From: Actinomycetales bacterium
GTDB lineage: Bacteria > Actinomycetota > Actinomycetes > Actinomycetales > Microbacteriaceae
DNA length: 12,014 bases
Assembly: GCA_028868555.1 (NCBI GenBank)
Contig: JAGWUG010000010.1
Span: forward strand, 1 to 12,014
Reading direction: 5' to 3'
The notes beneath the pieces are model-generated. The model was not told where the DNA came from. It searched no databases and was given only the letters and a program-made list of their open reading frames with translations. Shown here piece by piece: positions 593-9,789 of this stretch. Made by a program: the position numbers and the translations under genes. Position 1 is the first letter of the stretch. Each line of letters starts with the position of its first letter.

Positions 593-1012
593 CTAGTTAG
601 CGCGCTGGCGCCAGACCACAACGCTGTTGTTTTTGGCTGGGCGTTGGCCCTGGGCCAGGCTCACTACGCCCTGGTCGCCGGCGGCAAAGACGCGGGCTCC
701 CGGACGGTTCATGAGTTCGGTTGCGAGAGTTGACTCTAGGTCGCGCACGCGCTTCCGAAGGGTTGCGGTTTCGTTCTCAAGTTCGAGGATTCGCTTGATG
801 CCGGTGAGGCTAACGCCCTCGGCACTCAGGCGGGCAATCTCCTGAAGTTGGGCCACGTTTCGCATGGTGTATCGACGGCTATTGCCAGCGGTTCGCACTG
901 GGCAAACCAAACCCAAGTGGTCGTATTGGCGCAGGGTCTGCGGATGCATCTGCGCCAGCTCGGCGGCCACCGAAATCACAAATATTGGAGTGTCCTCGGT
1001 GATCTCTTCCAT
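593..1012 (-). CDS. hspR: HspR, MerR-family heat-shock repressor
   Basis: HspR represses the dnaK operon by binding HAIR inverted repeats; in Streptomyces and mycobacteria it needs DnaK as co-repressor. The 139-residue protein is normal length. Seen: a MerR-type winged helix-turn-helix with FVISVAAELAQMHPQTLRQY (11-30), then DHLGL, and the wing and second helix at SRRYTMRNVAQLQEI (45-59). After this comes VSLTGIKRILELE (68-80), a leucine-zipper-like helix to about residue 100, and a variable C-terminus ending in VVVW plus basic residues, as in other HspR proteins. Its ATG overlaps the dnaJ stop as TAATG, so translation is probably coupled. Its target sites are at 4431-4451 and 4495-4515, making the operon self-regulated. 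Confidence 0.95.
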   Translation of the reverse strand: MEEITEDTPIFVISVAAELAQMHPQTLRQYDHLGLVCPVRTAGNSRRYTMRNVAQLQEIARLSAEGVSLTGIKRILELENETATLRKRVRDLESTLATELMNRPGARVFAAGDQGVVSLAQGQRPAKNNSVVVWRQRAN

Positions 1013-1944
1013 TAGAGCAAACCGGCTTTCTGGAGCAGTTCGGCACGTGGATCTTCATCGGGTAGCTCTTTGGCAAATGCTTCCAGAGCCTCGGCGGCCT
1101 TGTGGCTGAGGTGCGAAGGCACGGCAATCTCAACGGTTGCCAGCAGGTCTCCCGAGTGCTTCTCGGTGACCACACCCTTGCCCTTCACTCTGAGGACTCG
1201 CCCGTTTGGAGTGCCCGGGGCAACCTTGAGCTTCACCGGTTCGCCACCCAGAGTTGGAACCTGGATGGTGGCACCTAGTGCTGCCTCGACGAAGGTCACT
1301 GGCACGGTAACGCGCAGGTTGTCGCCGTCGCGGGTGAACACAGGGTGAGGCTTGATTGTCACGGTCACGAGCATGTCGCCGTTCGGGCCACCGTTCATGG
1401 ACGGCTGGCCACGGCCACGCAGCTTGATCTTGGCGCCATCCTTGATGCCTGCCGGCACCTTGAATGAAACGTCCTCGCCATGCTGGAAACTCAGCTTGCG
1501 CGTGGTGCCCTTGACTCCATCGATGAAGTCAACGGTCACCGATGCGGTGAGATCGGCTCCCGGGGTAGGACCGCCGAAGCCGCCACCAAAGCCTCCGCCG
1601 AATCCACCGGGGAATCCGGCTCCGCGGCCGCCACCAAACAGGTTGGCGAAGACGTCTTCGAATCCGGCGCCGCCCATGTTTGGACCGGCACCAGTGAAGC
1701 GGGCTCCGCCTCCCATGGCCTTGACTGCGTCATACTCCTTGCGCTGGGCGCTGTCGCTCAGCACGGTGTATGCCTCGGAGATCTCCTTGAAGCGGGCTTC
1801 CGCCTTGGCATCACCCGGGTTGGAGTCCGGGTGATACTGGCGTGCTAGCTTGCGGTAAACCTTCTTGAGTTCGGCATCGGAGACATCTTTGCTCACGCCA
1901 AGGATCTTGTAGAAGTCCTTGTCAAACCAGTCTTGACTTGCCAT
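1012..1944 (-). CDS. dnaJ: DnaJ-type co-chaperone without zinc finger (type II)
   Basis: A J-domain protein that brings clients to DnaK and stimulates its ATPase. It has 310 residues. Seen: J domain about 9-75 with the essential HPD at 38-40, a G/F-rich linker about 78-130 with repeated GGFGG units, then two beta-sandwich client-binding domains of the DnaJ C-terminal type from about 131. The cysteine-rich zinc-binding domain (four CxxCxGxG repeats) that would interrupt the first sandwich is missing, and the protein has no cysteine at all. It is therefore architecturally CbpA-like, although it sits in the dnaK operon. The start is supported by GAGGA 6 nt upstream of the ATG. The gap from grpE is 43 nt, and its stop overlaps the hspR start. 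A second, zinc-containing DnaJ may exist elsewhere in the genome, as in many actinobacteria. Confidence 0.95.
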   Translation of the reverse strand: MASQDWFDKDFYKILGVSKDVSDAELKKVYRKLARQYHPDSNPGDAKAEARFKEISEAYTVLSDSAQRKEYDAVKAMGGGARFTGAGPNMGGAGFEDVFANLFGGGRGAGFPGGFGGGFGGGFGGPTPGADLTASVTVDFIDGVKGTTRKLSFQHGEDVSFKVPAGIKDGAKIKLRGRGQPSMNGGPNGDMLVTVTIKPHPVFTRDGDNLRVTVPVTFVEAALGATIQVPTLGGEPVKLKVAPGTPNGRVLRVKGKGVVTEKHSGDLLATVEIAVPSHLSHKAAEALEAFAKELPDEDPRAELLQKAGLL

Positions 1945-1987
1945 TGCCGTCCTCGCTTTCTTAGGCTGTTGGGTTTCTTGTGGTTAG

Positions 1988-2557
1988 TTATTCGGCAGGA
2001 ATCTGAACGGCTACCTTGGCGGCGCGAATCACGCGGTCACCAAGCTGGTAGCCAGGCTCAACAACGTCACCGATGATCATCTCGGTGACTCCTGGGGTTG
2101 GCAGCTGAACCAGGGCGTCGTGCAACTCAGGGTTGAACGGTTCGCCCTTGGCGCCAAACTGCTTGAGGCCAAACTTGTCGCCAGCGGCGCGAAGCTTGTT
2201 TGCGACGGCCGCGAAGGGTGAGCCCTCGAGGTCGCCGTGAGCCTCGGCACGAGCCAGGTCATCGAGCGCTGGGAACAGCGCGCGAAGTACCTCGGCAACG
2301 GCGTTGGTTCGGGCAACATCGCGGTCGCGCTCAACGCGAGCCTTGTAGTTCACAAACTCGGCCTGAAGGCGCTGCAGATCTGCGAGCAACTCTGCCTCCT
2401 TGCTGACTACCGCGCCGAGGTCTCCAAGCTGGGCCTCGAGGTCGGCGAGTACGTCGGCATCGGAGCCGGCTGGGCCTGGCTGAGAAGGATCGATTGCACC
2501 TTCGCCAGCCTGGCCCTGAGGCTCCTCGGTGCCGGGGTTACTCTCGTGCTCGGCCAT
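1988..2557 (-). CDS. grpE: GrpE, nucleotide exchange factor of DnaK
   Basis: GrpE is a dimer that opens the DnaK nucleotide pocket to release ADP. It has 189 residues. Seen: an acidic, Pro/Gly-rich disordered N-terminus (1-about 35), a long coiled-coil helix (about 38-90) containing LLADLQRLQAEFVNYKARVE (57-76), a short helical bundle, then the beta-wing head. The family signature region is FNPELHDALVQLPTPGV (141-157), followed by IIGDVVEPGYQLGDRVIRAA (161-180) and VAVQIP near the end. Its ATG overlaps the dnaK TAA as TAATG, which predicts translational coupling and a fixed ratio to DnaK. Confidence 0.97.
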   Translation of the reverse strand: MAEHESNPGTEEPQGQAGEGAIDPSQPGPAGSDADVLADLEAQLGDLGAVVSKEAELLADLQRLQAEFVNYKARVERDRDVARTNAVAEVLRALFPALDDLARAEAHGDLEGSPFAAVANKLRAAGDKFGLKQFGAKGEPFNPELHDALVQLPTPGVTEMIIGDVVEPGYQLGDRVIRAAKVAVQIPAE

Positions 2558-4392
2558 TACTTTGTTTCCTCGTCGTCTACAACCTCGGCGTCAACAACGT
2601 CTTCGCCGTTTGCCTCGGCACCTTCGGCTGGCTGCTCTGCGGCAGCTGCTGCGTAGATTGCCTCGCCCAGCTTCTGAGCGCTGGTGTTGAGCTTGTCGGT
2701 TGCTGCCTTTACGGCCTCGATGTCGTCGCCGGCGAGTGCGGTCTTGAGGGCGTCAACGTCGGCCTGAACCTCGGTCTTTACGTCCTCAGGAAGCTTCTCG
2801 TCGTTTTCCTTGATGAGCTTCTCGGTCTGGTAAACAATCTGCTCGCCGGTGTTGCGAACGTCCTGCTCTTCGCGGCGGGCCTTGTCCTCGGCTGCGTGCT
2901 CCTCGGCATCCTTGACCATGCGCTCGATGTCTTCCTTGCTCAGCGAGGAACCACCGGTGATGGTCATGGACTGCTCCTTACCGGTGCCCTTGTCCTTGGC
3001 CGAAACGTGAACGATACCGTTGGCGTCGATGTCGAAGGTGACCTCAACCTGTGGCACGCCACGTGGTGCTGGGGCGATGCCGGTCAGCTCGAAGTTACCC
3101 AGGCTCTTGTTGTCGCGGGTGAACTCGCGCTCGCCCTGGTAAACCTGAATGCTCACCGATGGCTGGTTGTCGGCAGCGGTGGTAAAGGTCTCCGAACGCT
3201 TGGTTGGGATAGCGGTGTTGCGCTCGATCAGCTTGGTCATGATGCCACCCATGGTCTCGATTCCGAGGCTCAGCGGGGTTACGTCGATGAGCAGAACGTC
3301 CTTGCGCTCACCCTTCAGAACACCGGCCTGGATGGAGGCACCAACGGCTACAACCTCGTCAGGGTTTACACCCTTGTTTGGCTCCTTGCCGCCGGTGAGG
3401 GTCTTCACCAGTTCGGCCACTGCAGGCATACGGGTGGATCCACCAACCAGTACGACGTGGTCAATGTCAGACAGCTTGACGCCGGCTTCCTTGATTACGT
3501 CGTTGAATGGCTTCTTGGTGCGCTCGAGCAGGTCTGCGGTGAGGTCCTGGAACTGGGCGCGGGTGATGGTCTCGTCGAGGTTGGCTGGGCCGTTCTCGGT
3601 GAGGCTCAGGTATGGCAGCTGAACGCTGGCCTGAGTAGCCTGTGAGAGCTCCTTCTTGGCCTGCTCGGCAGCTTCCTTCAGACGCTGCAGCGCAATCTTG
3701 TCGTTGCTAACGTCAACGCCGGTGGTCTCCTTGAAACGCTTGATCAGGTGCTGAACAATGCGCTGGTCCCAGTCGTCTCCACCGAGGCGGTTGTCACCGG
3801 AGGTTGCCTTTACCTGGATGGTGCTGAAGCCGTCGTCCTTGCCAACCTCGAGCAGCGAAACGTCGAAGGTACCGCCACCCAGGTCGTAAACCAGGATGAG
3901 CTCGTCTTCCTTGCCCTTGTCCAGGCCGTAGGCCAGAGCGGCTGCGGTTGGCTCGTTGATGATGCGGAGCACGTTGAGACCCGAGATCTCGCCGGCCTCC
4001 TTGGTGGCCTGACGCTCGGCGTCGTTGAAGTATGCAGGAACGGTGATTACTGCATCGGTGACTGCCTCACCCAGGTAGGTCTCTGCGTCACGCTTGAGCT
4101 TGGCCAGAATACGGGCCGAGATCTCCTGAGGGGTGTACTTCTTGTCGTCAACCGCGAACTTCCAGTCGGTGCCCATGTGGCGCTTCACCGATGCAATGGT
4201 GCGGTCAACGTTGGTGACGGCCTGGCGCTTGGCGGTCTCGCCAACCAGCACCTCGCCGTCCTTGGTGAATGCAACCACCGATGGGGTGGTGCGGAAGCCT
4301 TCTGCGTTAGCGATAACGGTTGGTTCGCCACCCTCAAGGACCGAAACGGCCGAGTTGGTGGTTCCGAGGTCGATGCCTACTGCACGTGCCAT
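2557..4392 (-). CDS. dnaK: DnaK, Hsp70 chaperone
   Basis: ATP-dependent cytoplasmic chaperone and first gene of the operon. It has 611 residues. Seen: phosphate-binding loop GIDLGTTNS (6-14), [10 protein letters not shown] (115-124), [12 protein letters not shown] (145-156), DLGGGTFD (170-177), the adenosine motif [11 protein letters not shown] (313-323), interdomain linker DVLLIDV (365-371), the beta-sandwich substrate domain to about 480, then the helical lid and an acidic tail ending DDEETK. The segment after residue 75 is short, as in Gram-positive DnaK proteins, which lack the insertion found in proteobacteria. The start is supported by AGGAG 6 nt before the ATG. Transcription is probably driven from about 4455-4478 and repressed by HspR at two flanking HAIR sites. 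The long open frames on the opposite strand are codon-bias shadows. Confidence 0.99.
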
Positions 4393-6877: not shown

Positions 6878-6900
6878 TTTCTACTTTTTGTAGAATTGCA
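6878..6900 (+). promoter_or_regulatory. blaI promoter with overlapping BlaI-type operator; transcript probably leaderless
   Basis: A dyad TTCTAC-TTTTT-GTAGAA (6879-6895) overlaps a good -10, TAGAAT (6891-6896). The -10 ends 6 nt before the blaI ATG at 6903, so transcription should start at or beside the start codon; no ribosome site fits in between. No clear -35 is visible. The stretch 6878-6900 matches 21 of 23 bases with 9766-9788. The operator over the -10 predicts autorepression. Confidence 0.8.
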
Positions 6901-6902
6901 TC

Positions 6903-7280
6903 ATGACTAGTCGCGGCCGTAATCAGGGTGAGCTCGAGTCTGCTGTGCTCGAAGTGCTCTGGTCTGCGCGAGACAGCGACGGCCCGCAGTTAACTAGCCA
7001 GGAGATTTCCGAGCGGCTTACCCCGACTGGAATGCTTGCCATCACAACCGTGCTCACAGTTCTGAGCCGCTTGGTGGATAAGGGTCTGGTTAGCCGCTCT
7101 CAGGGCGCTGGTCGCTCCCTTCTTTTTGAGGCCGCCCAGAGTCGGGCTCAACACGATGCGGCGCTCTTGCTTCGCATTGTCGAGGACAACCCGAACCCAC
7201 TTTTGGCTTTCTCACATTTCACCAGCGGACTCACTCCCGAACAACTGGCGGCTCTCAAGCAGAGCCTGAACCGAGACTAA
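6903..7280 (+). CDS. BlaI/MecI/CopY-family transcriptional repressor
   Basis: A 125-residue winged-helix repressor. Seen: GELESAVLEVLW (9-20), LTSQEISERLTP (30-41), recognition helix and wing in LAITTVLTVLSRLVDKGLVS (45-64) with the following RSLLFEA strand, and the C-terminal dimerisation segment AFSHFTSGLTPEQLAALKQS (102-121), typical of actinobacterial members. In the family the repressor binds as a dimer to a TAC...GTA-type dyad and is inactivated by cleavage or release through a partner M56 membrane protease. That partner is encoded 2 nt downstream. The same dyad occurs at its own promoter and twice before the PCuAC gene, which suggests the regulon. Relatives control beta-lactamase, copper transport or respiration genes; no beta-lactamase is nearby. 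Confidence 0.92.
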   Translation: MTSRGRNQGELESAVLEVLWSARDSDGPQLTSQEISERLTPTGMLAITTVLTVLSRLVDKGLVSRSQGAGRSLLFEAAQSRAQHDAALLLRIVEDNPNPLLAFSHFTSGLTPEQLAALKQSLNRD

Positions 7281-7282
7281 TT

Positions 7283-8020
7283 ATGTTGAACTACCTGGCC
7301 TTGCTAGGCCTAGCCTTGGCATGGTTTTTCGTAGTGGGTTTTGCCGGCCACCGAATTCTCCCTCTCGCAGCTAGGCTCAGTCCTGGCCGGCAGGTTGCAG
7401 CATGGCTGACTTCTCTCTATAGCCTGATCGTTAGTCTGCTCACCGCGCTCGCAACATCCATAGTGCTATCGGTTATGGCTTGGCACTCGCTTCATACCGT
7501 TACACCCGGTCGTTCAAATCTTTGGTTTGTAATTCTGGTGAGTGTCCTGCCCTGGGTAACACTTGGTGCCATCTCTGCCTTGGCAGGTGCACTGCTGACA
7601 CGCCTCGAGCCGGCAAGGCAAGCAGCTCGGGCAGTGGGTGCATTGCTGCACCAGCGAAGTGCAACCTCAAACAGTTTCGAGGGCATGGACATTCAGATGG
7701 TTGCCACTGAGATTCCCCTAGCCTTAGTTGCTGATACTCGGCGGAGGCCGGTGCTATTAATCTCGACTGGTGCTCAGGACCTACTGAATGAAGCCGAGAT
7801 GCACGCCGTGCTCTGGCACGAGTACGCACACGCCATTTACCAGCACAACGGCATTAAGCGTGTGGCGGCCACGGCTGCGGCGTTGGCACCCAGACTGCCG
7901 TTGGCTCGCCTAATGCCATCGAAGATTGATCGGTTGTGTGAGTCCTGGGCGGATGAGTTTGCCTTGGCGAAGGTATCTGGGGAAGACCTCAGCAGCGCTA
8001 GAGAAAAAATGCACTTCTAG
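7283..8020 (+). CDS. Short M56-family (BlaR1-like) membrane metalloprotease
   Basis: A 245-residue membrane protein with three clear N-terminal hydrophobic segments (about 3-22, 40-66, 80-106), then a cytoplasmic protease part. Seen: zinc motif HEYAH (179-183) within MHAVLWHEYAHAIYQHN, and a third-ligand motif ESWADEFA with Glu 220 and Asp 224. PLALVADTRRRPVLLIS (145-161) is the usual strand region before the active site. It is shorter than typical actinobacterial M56 proteins: it ends 21 residues after Asp 224, with no further membrane segment and no extracellular sensor domain like the penicillin-binding part of BlaR1. It starts 2 nt after the repressor gene, the classic pairing in which the protease relieves repression. 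Its TAG shares the CTAG at 8017-8020 with the stop of the opposing peroxidase gene. The signal it senses is unknown. Confidence 0.85.
   Translation: MLNYLALLGLALAWFFVVGFAGHRILPLAARLSPGRQVAAWLTSLYSLIVSLLTALATSIVLSVMAWHSLHTVTPGRSNLWFVILVSVLPWVTLGAISALAGALLTRLEPARQAARAVGALLHQRSATSNSFEGMDIQMVATEIPLALVADTRRRPVLLISTGAQDLLNEAEMHAVLWHEYAHAIYQHNGIKRVAATAAALAPRLPLARLMPSKIDRLCESWADEFALAKVSGEDLSSAREKMHF
8017..8020. other. Shared CTAG: overlapping stop codons of convergent genes
   Basis: TAG at 8018-8020 ends the M56 gene on plus; CTA at 8017-8019, TAG on minus, ends the Dyp gene. There is no intergenic space and no hairpin terminator, so transcripts from each side should run into the other gene. Confidence 0.9.
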
Positions 8021-9261
8021 GCGAATAGCCGGTCAGCCAGGATTTCTCCGGGACCAGGCATCGGTGCAATCACAAAGGTGGCACTTCCAACTGGGACTGT
8101 CCACACGTTGAGGAGATCGAATTCCGCCAACTTACGCTGAACCGGGAGGTACTGGTTGTTTAGGTCGCGTGCATAGGCAAGAAAAAGCAGACCCGCTTCC
8201 CCCTGGGGCTGGCCATGGCTTGGGGTGGCCGTGTAGTTGTACGGCCTCCGATAGAAGCGCTGCTGGAACGAGTCACCGGCGGCACGACGCACGTGAGCAT
8301 ATTCGGGGATTGTGAGAAGGCCACTCGGCAGTTTGGCCTCAAGGTCTACCGGATCGTCAAGGCGAGTTCCACCTAAAGGCGCCCCGTTGGACAGCTTCCG
8401 CCCGATGGTGCTCTCCTTCTGGGGTGTGCTCAATGCGTCCCAGGTGTCCAGTTTCATGCGGATGCGCCGCACCACCAGTTGGGTGCCTCCGATGCACCAA
8501 TCGGGCCCGTCCTTTATCCAAACCAGATTTTCGAAGTCGTCGCTGTTGAAGGCCGGATTGTCCGTGCCGTCCACCTGCCCCATTAGGTTGCGGTGTACTG
8601 GCACTCCTCGGTCAACAATCGACTCCTGACTGAACCCGTCCTGCTGCCACTTGAGTTCGGCAAACTGGGCGCTGTCGCGAAGCAGCAACCGCACCATGTG
8701 GGCCAACTGCAGTGGGAGATTGCTCTGAACCTGCAGAAGAACATCGCCGCCGACGAATGGTTCTTCTAGACGATCGATCGAAAGCGCTGGAACCTGGGAA
8801 AAGCCGGTCGGGGCACGGTGTTCTAGTTTGAGTTTGGCAAACAGCTCGGGACCGAATCCAACCGCGATAGCGGGCTGGCCTGCGCCATTGGCCAACTCCG
8901 GTTGCGGGTCTCCGGCTGGAGCCTCCCCCCGGGTCAGACGCTGGATGTCATCGGTAAGTAACACCATCCACCGATGGACATCCGCTTTTGTGATTCCCGG
9001 GAGCAGGTCCAGCGCAACCAGCGATACATGACGATGCAGCGGGAACTCAATACCCAAACCCGCCCTAGGCACTGCGGCCCTCGTTGCCGCTGCTCGTTTG
9101 GTAGCACGAAGGTTCGCCTCGCCGGTCTCCAACCCCTTGACATGCGCAACGGCCGACCCCGCAACCCCGGCAATCGCCAGGGGTGCGGAGATCAGGACGT
9201 CTCTTCTAGAAACCAAGGGTCTAATTTGTCGGAGCCGGTGAAGGTGTGTAACTCTCGCCAC
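8017..9261 (-). CDS. Tat-exported Dyp-type haem peroxidase (DtpA/EfeB-like)
   Basis: A dye-decolorizing peroxidase using H2O2 and a haem b cofactor. With the GTG start it has 414 residues. Seen: twin-arginine motif SRRDVLI (18-24) followed by a hydrophobic Ala-rich stretch and AVAH, so export folded via Tat is likely. GQVDG at 228-232 contains the distal Asp 231 in MGQVDGTDNP. EYAHVRRA gives the proximal haem ligand His 323, and FYRRPYNY (336-343) carries the distal Arg. It looks A-type, like EfeB or Streptomyces DtpA. The GTG at 9261 overlaps the PCuAC gene by 41 nt. A TTG at 9216, 5 nt beyond the PCuAC stop, gives a shorter, more usual Tat n-region (VSRRDVL) and may be the true start; neither has a good ribosome site. 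No efeU or efeO is adjacent. Pairing with PCuAC recalls the Streptomyces copper chaperone-DtpA cluster. Confidence 0.92.
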   Translation of the reverse strand: MARVTHLHRLRQIRPLVSRRDVLISAPLAIAGVAGSAVAHVKGLETGEANLRATKRAAATRAAVPRAGLGIEFPLHRHVSLVALDLLPGITKADVHRWMVLLTDDIQRLTRGEAPAGDPQPELANGAGQPAIAVGFGPELFAKLKLEHRAPTGFSQVPALSIDRLEEPFVGGDVLLQVQSNLPLQLAHMVRLLLRDSAQFAELKWQQDGFSQESIVDRGVPVHRNLMGQVDGTDNPAFNSDDFENLVWIKDGPDWCIGGTQLVVRRIRMKLDTWDALSTPQKESTIGRKLSNGAPLGGTRLDDPVDLEAKLPSGLLTIPEYAHVRRAAGDSFQQRFYRRPYNYTATPSHGQPQGEAGLLFLAYARDLNNQYLPVQRKLAEFDLLNVWTVPVGSATFVIAPMPGPGEILADRLFA

Positions 9262-9724
9262 CGGCTACAACTGGTTTGGCGATTAGGTTGAAAGTTTGGG
9301 CCTTCGCTCCCTTGAAGGCAAAGGTGAACTTTACGATATCGCCCGCAACGATGGGCTTTTTCAAATTCATGAGCATTACGTGGAGTCCACCAGGTTGCAG
9401 GGTCACAGTTGCACCCTTCGCGATCTTGATCCCACCCTCTTTGTGGCTCATAACCCCGTTAATAACTTGGTGAGTCTGAACCATAGGTGCAATCTTGGTC
9501 GAACCGCCAGTTAGAACCACTGTGTGGTTGGTGCGGTTTGTGATCTTGGCGAAGATGCCAGTCATGCCACCAATGTGGTCCGAATATTCCGAGCTGCGAA
9601 TCCAGGCATCGGTAATTGCTACACCGGAATTTGAAGCCGCCTGGGCGGGCAAAACAGCCGCGGGTGTAAGCAGTGACAGCGCGGCTGCGAGTGACACAAA
9701 ACCGGCGGTGAATTTCTTTGACAT
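9221..9724 (-). CDS. PCuAC-type extracytoplasmic copper chaperone
   Basis: A 167-residue exported protein of the PCu(A)C family, cupredoxin-like chaperones that bind Cu(I) with Met and His and pass it to oxidases or other copper proteins. Seen: Sec signal peptide (1-30: KK, a hydrophobic core, AQA-A cleavage site), DAWIR (39-43), GMTGIFAKITN (53-63), and the copper-site region with Met 81, His 85, Met 92, His 94 and the closing HVMLM (115-119) after LQPGG. This fits the family pattern H...M...HxM, with small differences from the textbook spacing. AGGGAG lies 5 nt before the ATG. It is probably co-transcribed with the Dyp peroxidase gene, which starts within its 3' end or just after it. Two copies of the BlaI-type dyad lie upstream. 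Confidence 0.92.
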   Translation of the reverse strand: MSKKFTAGFVSLAAALSLLTPAAVLPAQAASNSGVAITDAWIRSSEYSDHIGGMTGIFAKITNRTNHTVVLTGGSTKIAPMVQTHQVINGVMSHKEGGIKIAKGATVTLQPGGLHVMLMNLKKPIVAGDIVKFTFAFKGAKAQTFNLIAKPVVAGGESYTPSPAPTN

Positions 9725-9737
9725 GGATGCTCCCTGG

Positions 9738-9760
9738 TTGTTCTACGGTATGTAGAACAA
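9738..9760 (-). promoter_or_regulatory. BlaI-type operator A, over the PCuAC transcription start
   Basis: A perfect inverted repeat with 9-bp arms and a 5-bp centre, TTGTTCTAC-N5-GTAGAACAA. It contains the same TTCTAC-N5-GTAGAA core as the blaI operator. It starts at the edge of the proposed -10 and covers the likely transcription start near 9753. Its centre is 26 bp from that of operator B. Confidence 0.85.
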
Positions 9761-9789
9761 TCTTATTTCTACAGTTTGTAGAATTGCAA
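9760..9789 (-). promoter_or_regulatory. Promoter of the PCuAC-Dyp operon with operator B filling the spacer
   Basis: On the minus strand TTGCAA (-35, 9789-9784) is followed by an 18-nt spacer and TAAGAT (-10, 9765-9760). The spacer is almost exactly the dyad TTCTAC-N5-GTAGAA (9767-9783). A repressor bound there would exclude RNA polymerase. The -10 is good and the -35 moderate. On the plus strand the same dyad includes TAGAAT (9779-9784), the -10 seen at blaI, so weak transcription antisense to dcd is possible. Confidence 0.72.

What the first reader, a model, noticed from the sequence alone, without database searches (positions are those of the whole stretch)
6878..9789. Four-gene BlaI/M56-controlled PCuAC-Dyp peroxidase cassette with a shared operator
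The dyad TTCTAC-N5-GTAGAA is seen at the blaI promoter and twice before PCuAC-Dyp, and I see no other copy in the window. BlaI repressors are known to act on such dyads and to be relieved by M56 proteases. PCuAC chaperones and secreted Dyp peroxidases (DtpA) are linked in Streptomyces copper trafficking, in a cluster that as I recall also has a Sco protein. The inference is a compact, signal-responsive extracytoplasmic copper/peroxidase system under BlaI control, without Sco, CopC or a beta-lactamase. I do not know of a described system with this exact make-up.
Basis: partly seen in the sequence, partly recalled or inferred. Interest (0 to 1): 0.72.

Follow-up and report, generated by a model that had tools for sequence, protein, structure and literature searches.

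The report
BlaI operator controls copper-oxidase genes
A small bacterium carries a repressor-protease pair that appears to switch on copper-delivery and peroxidase genes, and related bacteria use the same DNA switch for building or replacing the oxygen-consuming enzyme of respiration, which points to a respiration-guarding control system rather than an antibiotic one.

Summary
Three exact TTCTAC-N5-GTAGAA dyads lie before blaI and, in tandem, before PCuAC-DyP; they are the only exact copies in the 1.32-Mb draft genome. The pattern holds across species: in 67 genomes of the genus all 19 exact dyads sit within 43 bp of blaI, PCuAC/DyP or DUF1775-like/CopC starts. blaI and dyp co-occur (12 both, 2 dyp only, 4 blaI only, 49 neither; p=2.4e-8), and the two dyp genomes without blaI lack the dyad at PCuAC. 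In 7 of the 12 the pair lies away from blaI. In all 17 blaI promoters of the genus the dyad's right arm supplies a TAGAAT hexamer 6 nt before ATG.

But it is not a self-contained cassette. The same operator sits by cydA in 103 of 120 tandem-dyad loci of named genomes and, elsewhere in the order, by SURF1, CtaB-type, COX2, CtaG/CopD, CopC, HemQ and ResA genes. Best reading: a BlaI/protease regulon for cytochrome-oxidase biogenesis and copper supply, here pared to PCuAC-DyP. Binding, proteolysis and signal are inferred. A BlaI link to cytochrome bd is in print for M. tuberculosis; my searches found no report of the PCuAC-DyP branch.

The parts
6879..6895 (.). Dyad 1 (blaI operator) TTCTACTTTTTGTAGAA; its right arm runs into TAGAAT, 6 nt before the blaI ATG
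   Evidence: Exact match; same position with at most 2 mismatches in 17 of 17 blaI copies of 16 genus genomes, TAGAAT-N6-ATG in all 17
6903..7280 (+). blaI: winged-helix repressor, 125 aa, no cysteine
   Evidence: PF03965 56.5 bits, cut-off 22.6; profile matches 2g9w and the solved BlaI and MecI structures; A46, T48, T49, T52, L54, R56 invariant in 17 cyd-linked and PCuAC/CopC-linked BlaIs
7283..8020 (+). BlaR1-like (M56/M48-type) membrane metalloprotease, 245 aa, no extra sensor domain
   Evidence: HEYAH at residue 179, E220, D224 invariant; N-terminal hydrophobic segments; below Pfam M56 and M48 cut-offs; some relatives beside blaI reach the M48 cut-off, none scanned reaches the M56 cut-off
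8017..9261 (-). dyp: DyP-type haem peroxidase with twin-arginine start (SRRDVLIS), 414 aa
   Evidence: PF20628 129 bits, PF04261 57.5 bits; R19, R20, G228, D231, G232, H323, R338, R339 invariant in 10 rows; related to solved DyPs including DtpA 5map/5mjh
9221..9724 (-). PCuAC copper chaperone, 167 aa, overlaps the dyp ORF start
   Evidence: PF04314 89.6 bits, cut-off 29.4; H85, M92, H115, M117 invariant in 11 rows; solved PCuAC 9yah best match
9741..9757 (.). Dyad 2, 16 nt before the PCuAC ATG
   Evidence: Exact match; distance
9760..9765 (-). TAAGAT, -10-like hexamer between the two dyads (my reading)
   Evidence: Read; the tool's sigma-70 scan reported no promoter here
9767..9783 (.). Dyad 3, 26 bp from dyad 2 start to start; fills the spacer between TTGCAA (9784-9789, minus strand) and TAAGAT
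   Evidence: Exact match; sequence

Best explanation
The window holds the pared-down local branch of a BlaI/M56-type regulon that guards the copper-dependent cytochrome oxidase. BlaI dimers sit on the dyads and shut the blaI-protease promoter (the dyad overlaps its likely -10 box) and the PCuAC-DyP promoter. When oxidase assembly or its copper supply fails, the membrane protease is activated and removes BlaI. The cell then makes PCuAC, which can load the CuA site of COX2 in this apparently Sco-less genome, and DyP, a peroxidase with a Tat-type start that may set the copper redox state or clear peroxide. Larger relatives use the same switch to make cytochrome bd, which needs no copper, and other oxidase-assembly factors. 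Shown by sequence: the dyads, their promoter positions, conservation, joint absence with blaI, dyads at distant loci, the regulon gene content, COX2 with a CuA motif in the own genome. Inferred: DNA binding, proteolysis of BlaI, the signal, and the direction of the copper response.
For: (1) 19 of 19 exact dyads in 67 genus genomes lie 6-43 bp before blaI, PCuAC/DyP or DUF1775-like/CopC starts. (2) blaI in 16, dyp in 14, both in 12 of 67; Fisher p=2.4e-8 without correction for relatedness; the two dyp genomes without blaI (G006, G214) have no dyad before PCuAC. (3) Dyads at PCuAC on loci far from blaI in G028, G016, G149, G209 (same contigs, over 100 kb apart). (5) G281, all 15 sites: COX2, SURF1, UbiA-family (CtaB-type), CopD-CtaG, CopC, HemQ, Sdh_cyt, ResA region, blaI, plus 6 of other or unknown function. 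(6) In a further family (G237, G417) the dyad precedes a small membrane ORF, PCuAC and DyP, all in one direction, PCuAC about 1 kb on. (7) Own COX2 with CAELCGEFHSAM. (8) Print: B. subtilis copper starvation cripples aa3 and raised Cyd rescues growth (PMC13344008, abstract and passages); S. lividans sco-ecuc-SLI_4212-dtpA operon, with reduced oxidase activity in a dtpA mutant (PMC4736821, passages); M. tuberculosis BlaI said to bind cytochrome bd and ATP synthase promoters (PMC5473688, passages).
Against: No binding, expression or metal data. In the wider family only 7 of 30 fetched PCuAC loci have a dyad at up to 1 mismatch while 29 of 30 have DyP beside PCuAC, so the pair does not need BlaI. 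In the window's genus none of the 18 cydA loci over cut-off (8 of them in blaI genomes) has a dyad at up to 1 mismatch; G028 has one 2-mismatch site 77 bp before the cydA match, so the bd branch is not seen there. The raw dyad count is not enriched: 19 against 48 for the backward control in the genus (my addition). Genes with no plain link to oxidases (isocitrate lyase, Usp, PNPOx, amidohydrolase, glyoxalase-like, ManC-like) also lie by dyads in other families; Sdh_cyt in G281 is 242 bp away with a ManC-like gene nearer on the other side, and CopD-CtaG 236 bp. In B. subtilis the DUF1775 protein YcnI is secondary to YcnJ and not critical for aa3. 31 of 67 genus genomes have a PF02630 match just over its cut-off (at most 26.3 bits), which I take for thioredoxin-like cross-hits but did not check, so Sco absence is claimed for the own draft only. 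The protease is below Pfam's M56 cut-off.
Confidence: 0.62

Rival explanations
1. Copper-excess response: BlaI acts like CopY, sensing surplus copper, and PCuAC-DyP protect the envelope.
For: BlaI gives a weak CopY/TcrY match, 26.6 bits against a cut-off of 121.95; PCuAC and CopC bind copper in print.
Against: The window BlaI has no cysteine, so no CopY-type metal site (that motif is recalled); haem, oxidase-assembly and cytochrome bd genes share the operator. No copper ATPase or multicopper oxidase was recognised beside the dyads, but I did not search for those families.
Confidence: 0.15
2. General respiratory or nitrosative stress switch: the protease senses inhibition of the electron chain (NO, cyanide, redox state), copper being only one cause.
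For: Flavohaemoglobin-like genes (L332, L336, L338: globin, FAD and NAD domains in the two scanned by Pfam, but below the NCBIfam flavohaemoprotein cut-off in the one scanned), HemQ, Sdh_cyt and cytochrome bd carry the dyad in relatives.
Against: In the window's genus the exact dyads, apart from blaI's own, lie only by PCuAC, DyP, CopC and DUF1775-like genes.
Confidence: 0.35
3. Cell-wall antibiotic sensing as in BlaR1-BlaI.
For: BlaI family and a BlaR1-like protease.
Against: The protease is 245 aa and ends 25 residues after Glu220, no room for a penicillin-binding sensor; no beta-lactamase among the window's scanned proteins. I did not search the dyad loci of relatives for beta-lactamases.
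Confidence: 0.05
4. Iron or haem-iron uptake: DyP is an EfeB-like deferrochelatase.
For: TIGR01412 hits at 256 bits.
Against: Far under its cut-off of 428; no EfeU or EfeO among the eight window proteins scanned; partner is a copper chaperone with all four ligands.
Confidence: 0.06

Closest known systems
Mycobacterial BlaI-BlaR (Rv1846c-Rv1845c)
   Same: BlaI with a BlaR that lacks the sensor domain; BlaI reported to bind cytochrome bd and ATP synthase promoters (PMC5473688, passages); closest solved structure to our BlaI profile is 2g9w (that 2g9w is Rv1846c is recalled)
   Different: Targets here are PCuAC-DyP and blaI itself; no beta-lactamase branch seen in the window. The mycobacterial operator letters were not seen in any call, so the operators were not compared
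Streptomyces sco-ecuc-SLI_4212-dtpA copper pathway
   Same: Extracytoplasmic copper chaperone with a Tat-exported DyP, tied to cuproenzyme maturation and oxidase activity (PMC4736821, passages)
   Different: Streptomyces operon has Sco and a putative copper transporter; the word BlaI does not occur in that paper's held text
B. subtilis YcnK-YcnJI
   Same: Copper-supply genes (CopC/CopD and DUF1775 domains) supporting aa3 under copper starvation, with Cyd as bypass (PMC13344008, abstract and passages)
   Different: Repressor is YcnK, not BlaI with a protease; cyd is under Rex
CopY/CopR copper repressors
   Same: Repressors of copper genes, related fold recalled (PMC7253601, search listing)
   Different: Export genes, operator TACANNTGTA; no cysteine site in our BlaI
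C. glutamicum copper-deprivation stimulon (bc1-aa3 biogenesis)
   Same: By its title, the same class of genes as the G281 regulon
   Different: Paper not held; seen only as a reference in PMC8424229; its regulator is not known to me

Membership tests
BlaI/MecI repressor family | Penicillinase_R winged-helix domain above cut-off | tested here: met
   56.5 bits against 22.6; matches to BlaI and MecI structures
BlaI/MecI repressor family | Binds a dyad at its own promoter | not testable with these tools
   Dyad present and conserved at 17 of 17 blaI starts of the genus; binding not tested
M56 (BlaR1) peptidase | Pfam M56 match above cut-off | tested here: not met
   11.3 bits against 31
M56 (BlaR1) peptidase | HEXXH plus downstream Glu after membrane segments, gene beside blaI | tested here: met
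   fold not predicted (server busy, 8 tries)
BlaR1 beta-lactam sensor | C-terminal penicillin-binding sensor domain | tested here: not met
   245 aa, ends 25 residues after Glu220
PCuAC chaperone | Four His/Met copper ligands (positions recalled) | tested here: met
   H85, M92, H115, M117 invariant in 11 rows
DyP peroxidase | GXXDG, proximal His, distal Arg (recalled) | tested here: met
EfeB deferrochelatase | TIGR01412 above cut-off | tested here: not met
   256 against 428 bits
CopY copper repressor | C-terminal cysteine metal site (recalled) | tested here: not met
   No cysteine in the 125 aa; 26.6 bits against 121.95
Streptomyces Sco-ECuC-DtpA pathway | Sco present | tested here: not met
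   Own hits 20.0 and 19.1 bits, cut-off 22.8; the first is a peroxiredoxin, the second not examined; assembly 81% complete

The most novel reading that the evidence does not exclude
Many actinobacteria, from Micrococcaceae and Microbacteriaceae to Geodermatophilaceae, run one BlaI/sensorless-protease switch with a fixed operator (TTCTAC-N5-GTAGAA) as a guard of the copper-haem oxidase. Between them it commands copper delivery (PCuAC-DyP, CopC, DUF1775, CopD-CtaG), oxidase assembly (SURF1, CtaB, HemQ, ResA, CcsB, COX2 itself) and the copper-free bypass oxidase (cytochrome bd). Streamlined lineages such as the window's keep only the copper branch. The sensorless BlaR-type protease would then be a sensor of oxidase failure or copper shortage, not of antibiotics.
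Probability: 0.55. Interest if true: 0.8.

Novelty: new variant of a known kind. Interest (0 to 1): 0.66.

Why it matters
[quoted passage not shown] The gene content found here makes a testable answer, oxidase or copper failure, in harmless environmental bacteria. It also gives uncharacterised genes by dyads (small membrane ORFs in L331/L358/L373 and L380/L387) as candidate oxidase-assembly factors, and ties DyP peroxidases to respiration.

Tried and rejected
Counting dyads as proof: rejected, since the backward control is commoner in the genus (48 against 19); position, not number, carries the case. Sigma-70 promoter scan: nothing found. DUF1775 (YcnI) label: the genus genes first named by eye are weak (L080 22.6 and L086 19.6 bits against 25; L087 none); only L246 (the same gene as in L383, G417) is a clear DUF1775 (114 bits), so I write DUF1775-like in the genus. 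Cytochrome bd as a target in the genus: not found in any of the 18 cydA loci over cut-off, bar one 2-mismatch site in G028.

Papers, ten searches: BlaI with DyP (7 papers), DtpA with Streptomyces and copper chaperone (13: 3), BlaI with M56, copper, actinobacteria (14: 20 of 292 listed), YcnI, CopC, PCuAC (20: 5 of 6 listed), BlaI, Rv1846c, operator (21: 20 of 8,174 listed), BlaI with cydAB (27: 20 of 21 listed), copper deprivation in C. glutamicum (47: 20 of 56 listed), BlaI with M56 and Arthrobacter (49: 1), BlaI with cytochrome bd, actinobacteria, repressor (75: 3), BlaI with copper, oxidase, regulon, DyP (88: 18). Passages read: PMC7924339, PMC5473688, PMC5874750, PMC10581053 (its matches are blaIII, irrelevant), PMC12565901, PMC8265638, PMC4736821, PMC8424229, PMC13344008 (plus abstract); the rest by listing only. 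None seen describes the PCuAC-DyP branch; most subscription papers are not held, and Sala 2009 and Morosov 2018 were not seen.

Tree: BlaI rows shorter than 95 aa or with stops were left out, duplicates merged to 143, then two of three cyd rows among the L1xx/L2xx loci dropped, leaving 88; the PCuAC label was set by hand for up to 10 loci from dyads at a distant PCuAC. Few columns, so deep forks are unsure; one PCuAC row (L309) is a long branch.
Full report
CHECK. The window (contig C189 of a 322-contig draft genome, 1.32 Mb, 81% complete) encodes blaI 6903-7280, a membrane protease 7283-8020, and on the other strand dyp 8017-9261 and PCuAC 9221-9724. TTCTAC-N5-GTAGAA occurs exactly at 6879, 9741 and 9767 and nowhere else in the assembly. 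Three of the four families pass Pfam cut-offs. The protease does not pass the M56 or M48 cut-offs; it is called BlaR1-like from HEXXH, the conserved Glu and Asp, its place beside blaI in relatives, hydropathy, and weak profile matches to Ste24, HtpX and BlaR1. Structure prediction could not be run (eight tries, server busy).

GENUS TEST. In 67 genomes of the genus (own included) I searched the exact dyad, DyP, BlaI with an alignment, CydA, Sco and COX2. The dyad occurs 19 times in 12 genomes. All 19 lie 6-43 bp before a start codon of blaI, PCuAC (in G216 between divergent PCuAC and DyP) or the first gene of the DUF1775-like/CopC pair (starts are those of the mechanical ORF calls, G209 and G216 PCuAC with TTG). 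The backward control pattern gives 48 matches, so number alone is no evidence. BlaI is in 16 genomes, DyP in 14, both in 12 (p=2.4e-8; the test ignores relatedness). The DyP genomes without BlaI, G006 and G214, have no dyad before PCuAC. Of the 12 with both, G031's contig ends inside dyp; of the other 11, ten have a dyad with at most one mismatch before PCuAC and G215 has two copies with two mismatches. The BlaI genomes without DyP are G227, G010 and G020, which have the DUF1775-like/CopC pair beside blaI behind a dyad, and G210, which has a CopC gene back to back with blaI and a 1-mismatch dyad between them. In 7 of the 12 genomes with both (G149, G209, G009, G028, G030, G016, G216) PCuAC-DyP lies on another stretch or contig than blaI, so control would have to act in trans. 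cydA is over cut-off in 18 of 67 genomes, 8 of them with BlaI; none of the 18 has a dyad at up to one mismatch before it, and only G028 has one with two.

PROMOTER ANATOMY. In 17 of 17 blaI copies (16 genomes) the dyad, with 0-2 mismatches, ends 7 nt before the ATG and the junction reads TAGAAT-N6-ATG. TAGAAT at that distance looks like the -10 box of a leaderless actinobacterial promoter (recalled knowledge), so a bound repressor would cover the -10. Several PCuAC copies (G149, G028, G030, G016, G009) have the same geometry. The window's PCuAC instead has a leader with GGGAG before the ATG and two dyads 26 bp apart; by eye TTGCAA-N18-TAAGAT brackets the distal dyad. The tool's consensus scan found no promoter.

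WIDER. In 150 genomes of the family PCuAC is found in 37. Of the 30 loci returned, 29 have DyP beside it but only 7 have a dyad at up to one mismatch before PCuAC. Of 34 of the 37 genomes searched with the BlaI alignment (G000, G006 and G149 left out, being covered in the genus), 19 have a BlaI: six with the dyad at PCuAC, five with it at cydA, eight without a dyad at up to one mismatch in the BlaI locus. In four of the six (G140, G188, G116, G185) blaI-protease and PCuAC-DyP are divergent with the dyads between. Across the order 56 of 297 genomes have an exact dyad. A BlaI tree puts 40 of 42 cyd-linked rows in one clade (97/98; L016 and L018 fall elsewhere), the genus with G152/G070 in another (19 rows, 100/99) and the Aurantimicrobium type in a third (6 rows, 99/94). 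So one operator serves different targets in separate BlaI lineages.

REGULON CONTENT. For G281, all 15 exact sites were fetched. Beside them, 25-242 bp off: SURF1, UbiA-family (CtaB-type), COX2, Sdh_cyt, CopD-CtaG and CopC (Pfam), HemQ and the ResA/phosphatase region (by tblastn only, 47% and 42% identity), BlaI-protease, and six with other or unknown function (small membrane protein; isocitrate lyase or unknown; ABC transporter or HTH protein; PNPOx; lipoprotein-like; a small membrane ORF with CopC about 860 bp on). Some sites have an unrelated gene as near on the other side (glyoxalase-like by SURF1, ManC-like by Sdh_cyt). Other genomes add flavohaemoglobin-like genes, HemQ (NCBIfam over cut-off), cydDC (my label by eye), PepSY-TM and CopD-CtaG, Cytochrom_C_asm (CcsB-type), a ResA-like thioredoxin, DUF1775, Usp and amidohydrolase, CtaG, and in G237 and G417 a small membrane ORF followed by PCuAC and DyP. 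I fetched 7 of 10 sites of G237, 5 of 7 of G417 and all 6 of G309; in G309 these gave HemQ, a small membrane protein, cydAB-blaI (two sites), and two places without a recognised gene. Other dyad genomes of the order were seen at a few sites or not at all. Of the genes that I could name, many serve haem-copper oxidase assembly, its copper or haem supply, cytochrome c, or the bypass oxidase.

MECHANISM. The own genome has COX2 with a CuA motif and no Sco above cut-off. PCuAC has its four ligands; DyP has a twin-arginine start and catalytic residues. Print supports the logic: under copper starvation B. subtilis aa3 fails and raised Cyd rescues growth, though YcnI there is secondary to YcnJ (PMC13344008), and Streptomyces DtpA, with ECuC and Sco, serves copper-enzyme maturation (PMC4736821). 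I therefore read the window as a copper-supply branch of an oxidase-guard regulon. Signal, binding and proteolysis are inferred.

NOVELTY. BlaI with a sensorless BlaR acting on respiration is already stated for M. tuberculosis (PMC5473688, citing Sala 2009, which I did not see). The PCuAC-DyP branch, the conserved operator with its leaderless -10 overlap, and the oxidase-assembly regulon were not found in my ten searches (listed under Tried and rejected), which cover open-licence papers only. Hence: new variant of a known kind.

Noticed in passing
window 593-4392: dnaK-grpE-dnaJ-hspR-like heat-shock genes (named by eye) on the minus strand lie beside this locus; an MFS gene, blaI, protease and dcd recur near dnaK in several genus genomes.
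   Followed up: partly
window 9221-9724: The window's PCuAC lacks the lipobox cysteine that the other ten aligned PCuACs have at that column, so it may be secreted rather than lipid-anchored.
   Followed up: no
L380 3287-3934, L387 2503-3153; L331, L358, L373: Small membrane ORFs that recur behind the dyad, one kind before PCuAC-DyP; those scanned (L331, L358, L380) have no Pfam match; candidate new oxidase or copper factors.
   Followed up: partly
L138, L163, L187 (Bacteroidota); L143; L123, L170, L217, L226, L227: Tandem dyads outside actinobacteria with no cyd match; several clostridial ones lie by a BlaI, the Bacteroidota ones match none of my queries.
   Followed up: no
L016 1376: A cyd-linked BlaI in another family (G042) has TACTAC-N5-GTAGTA nearby, a variant of the operator.
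   Followed up: no
L081 and L082 (G031): Two contigs of one draft genome carry closely alike blaI regions, one followed by dyp and one by dcd: strain mixture or duplication.
   Followed up: no
L085 (G216): PCuAC and DyP are divergent here, with the dyads between them, so the pair is not always one operon.
   Followed up: no
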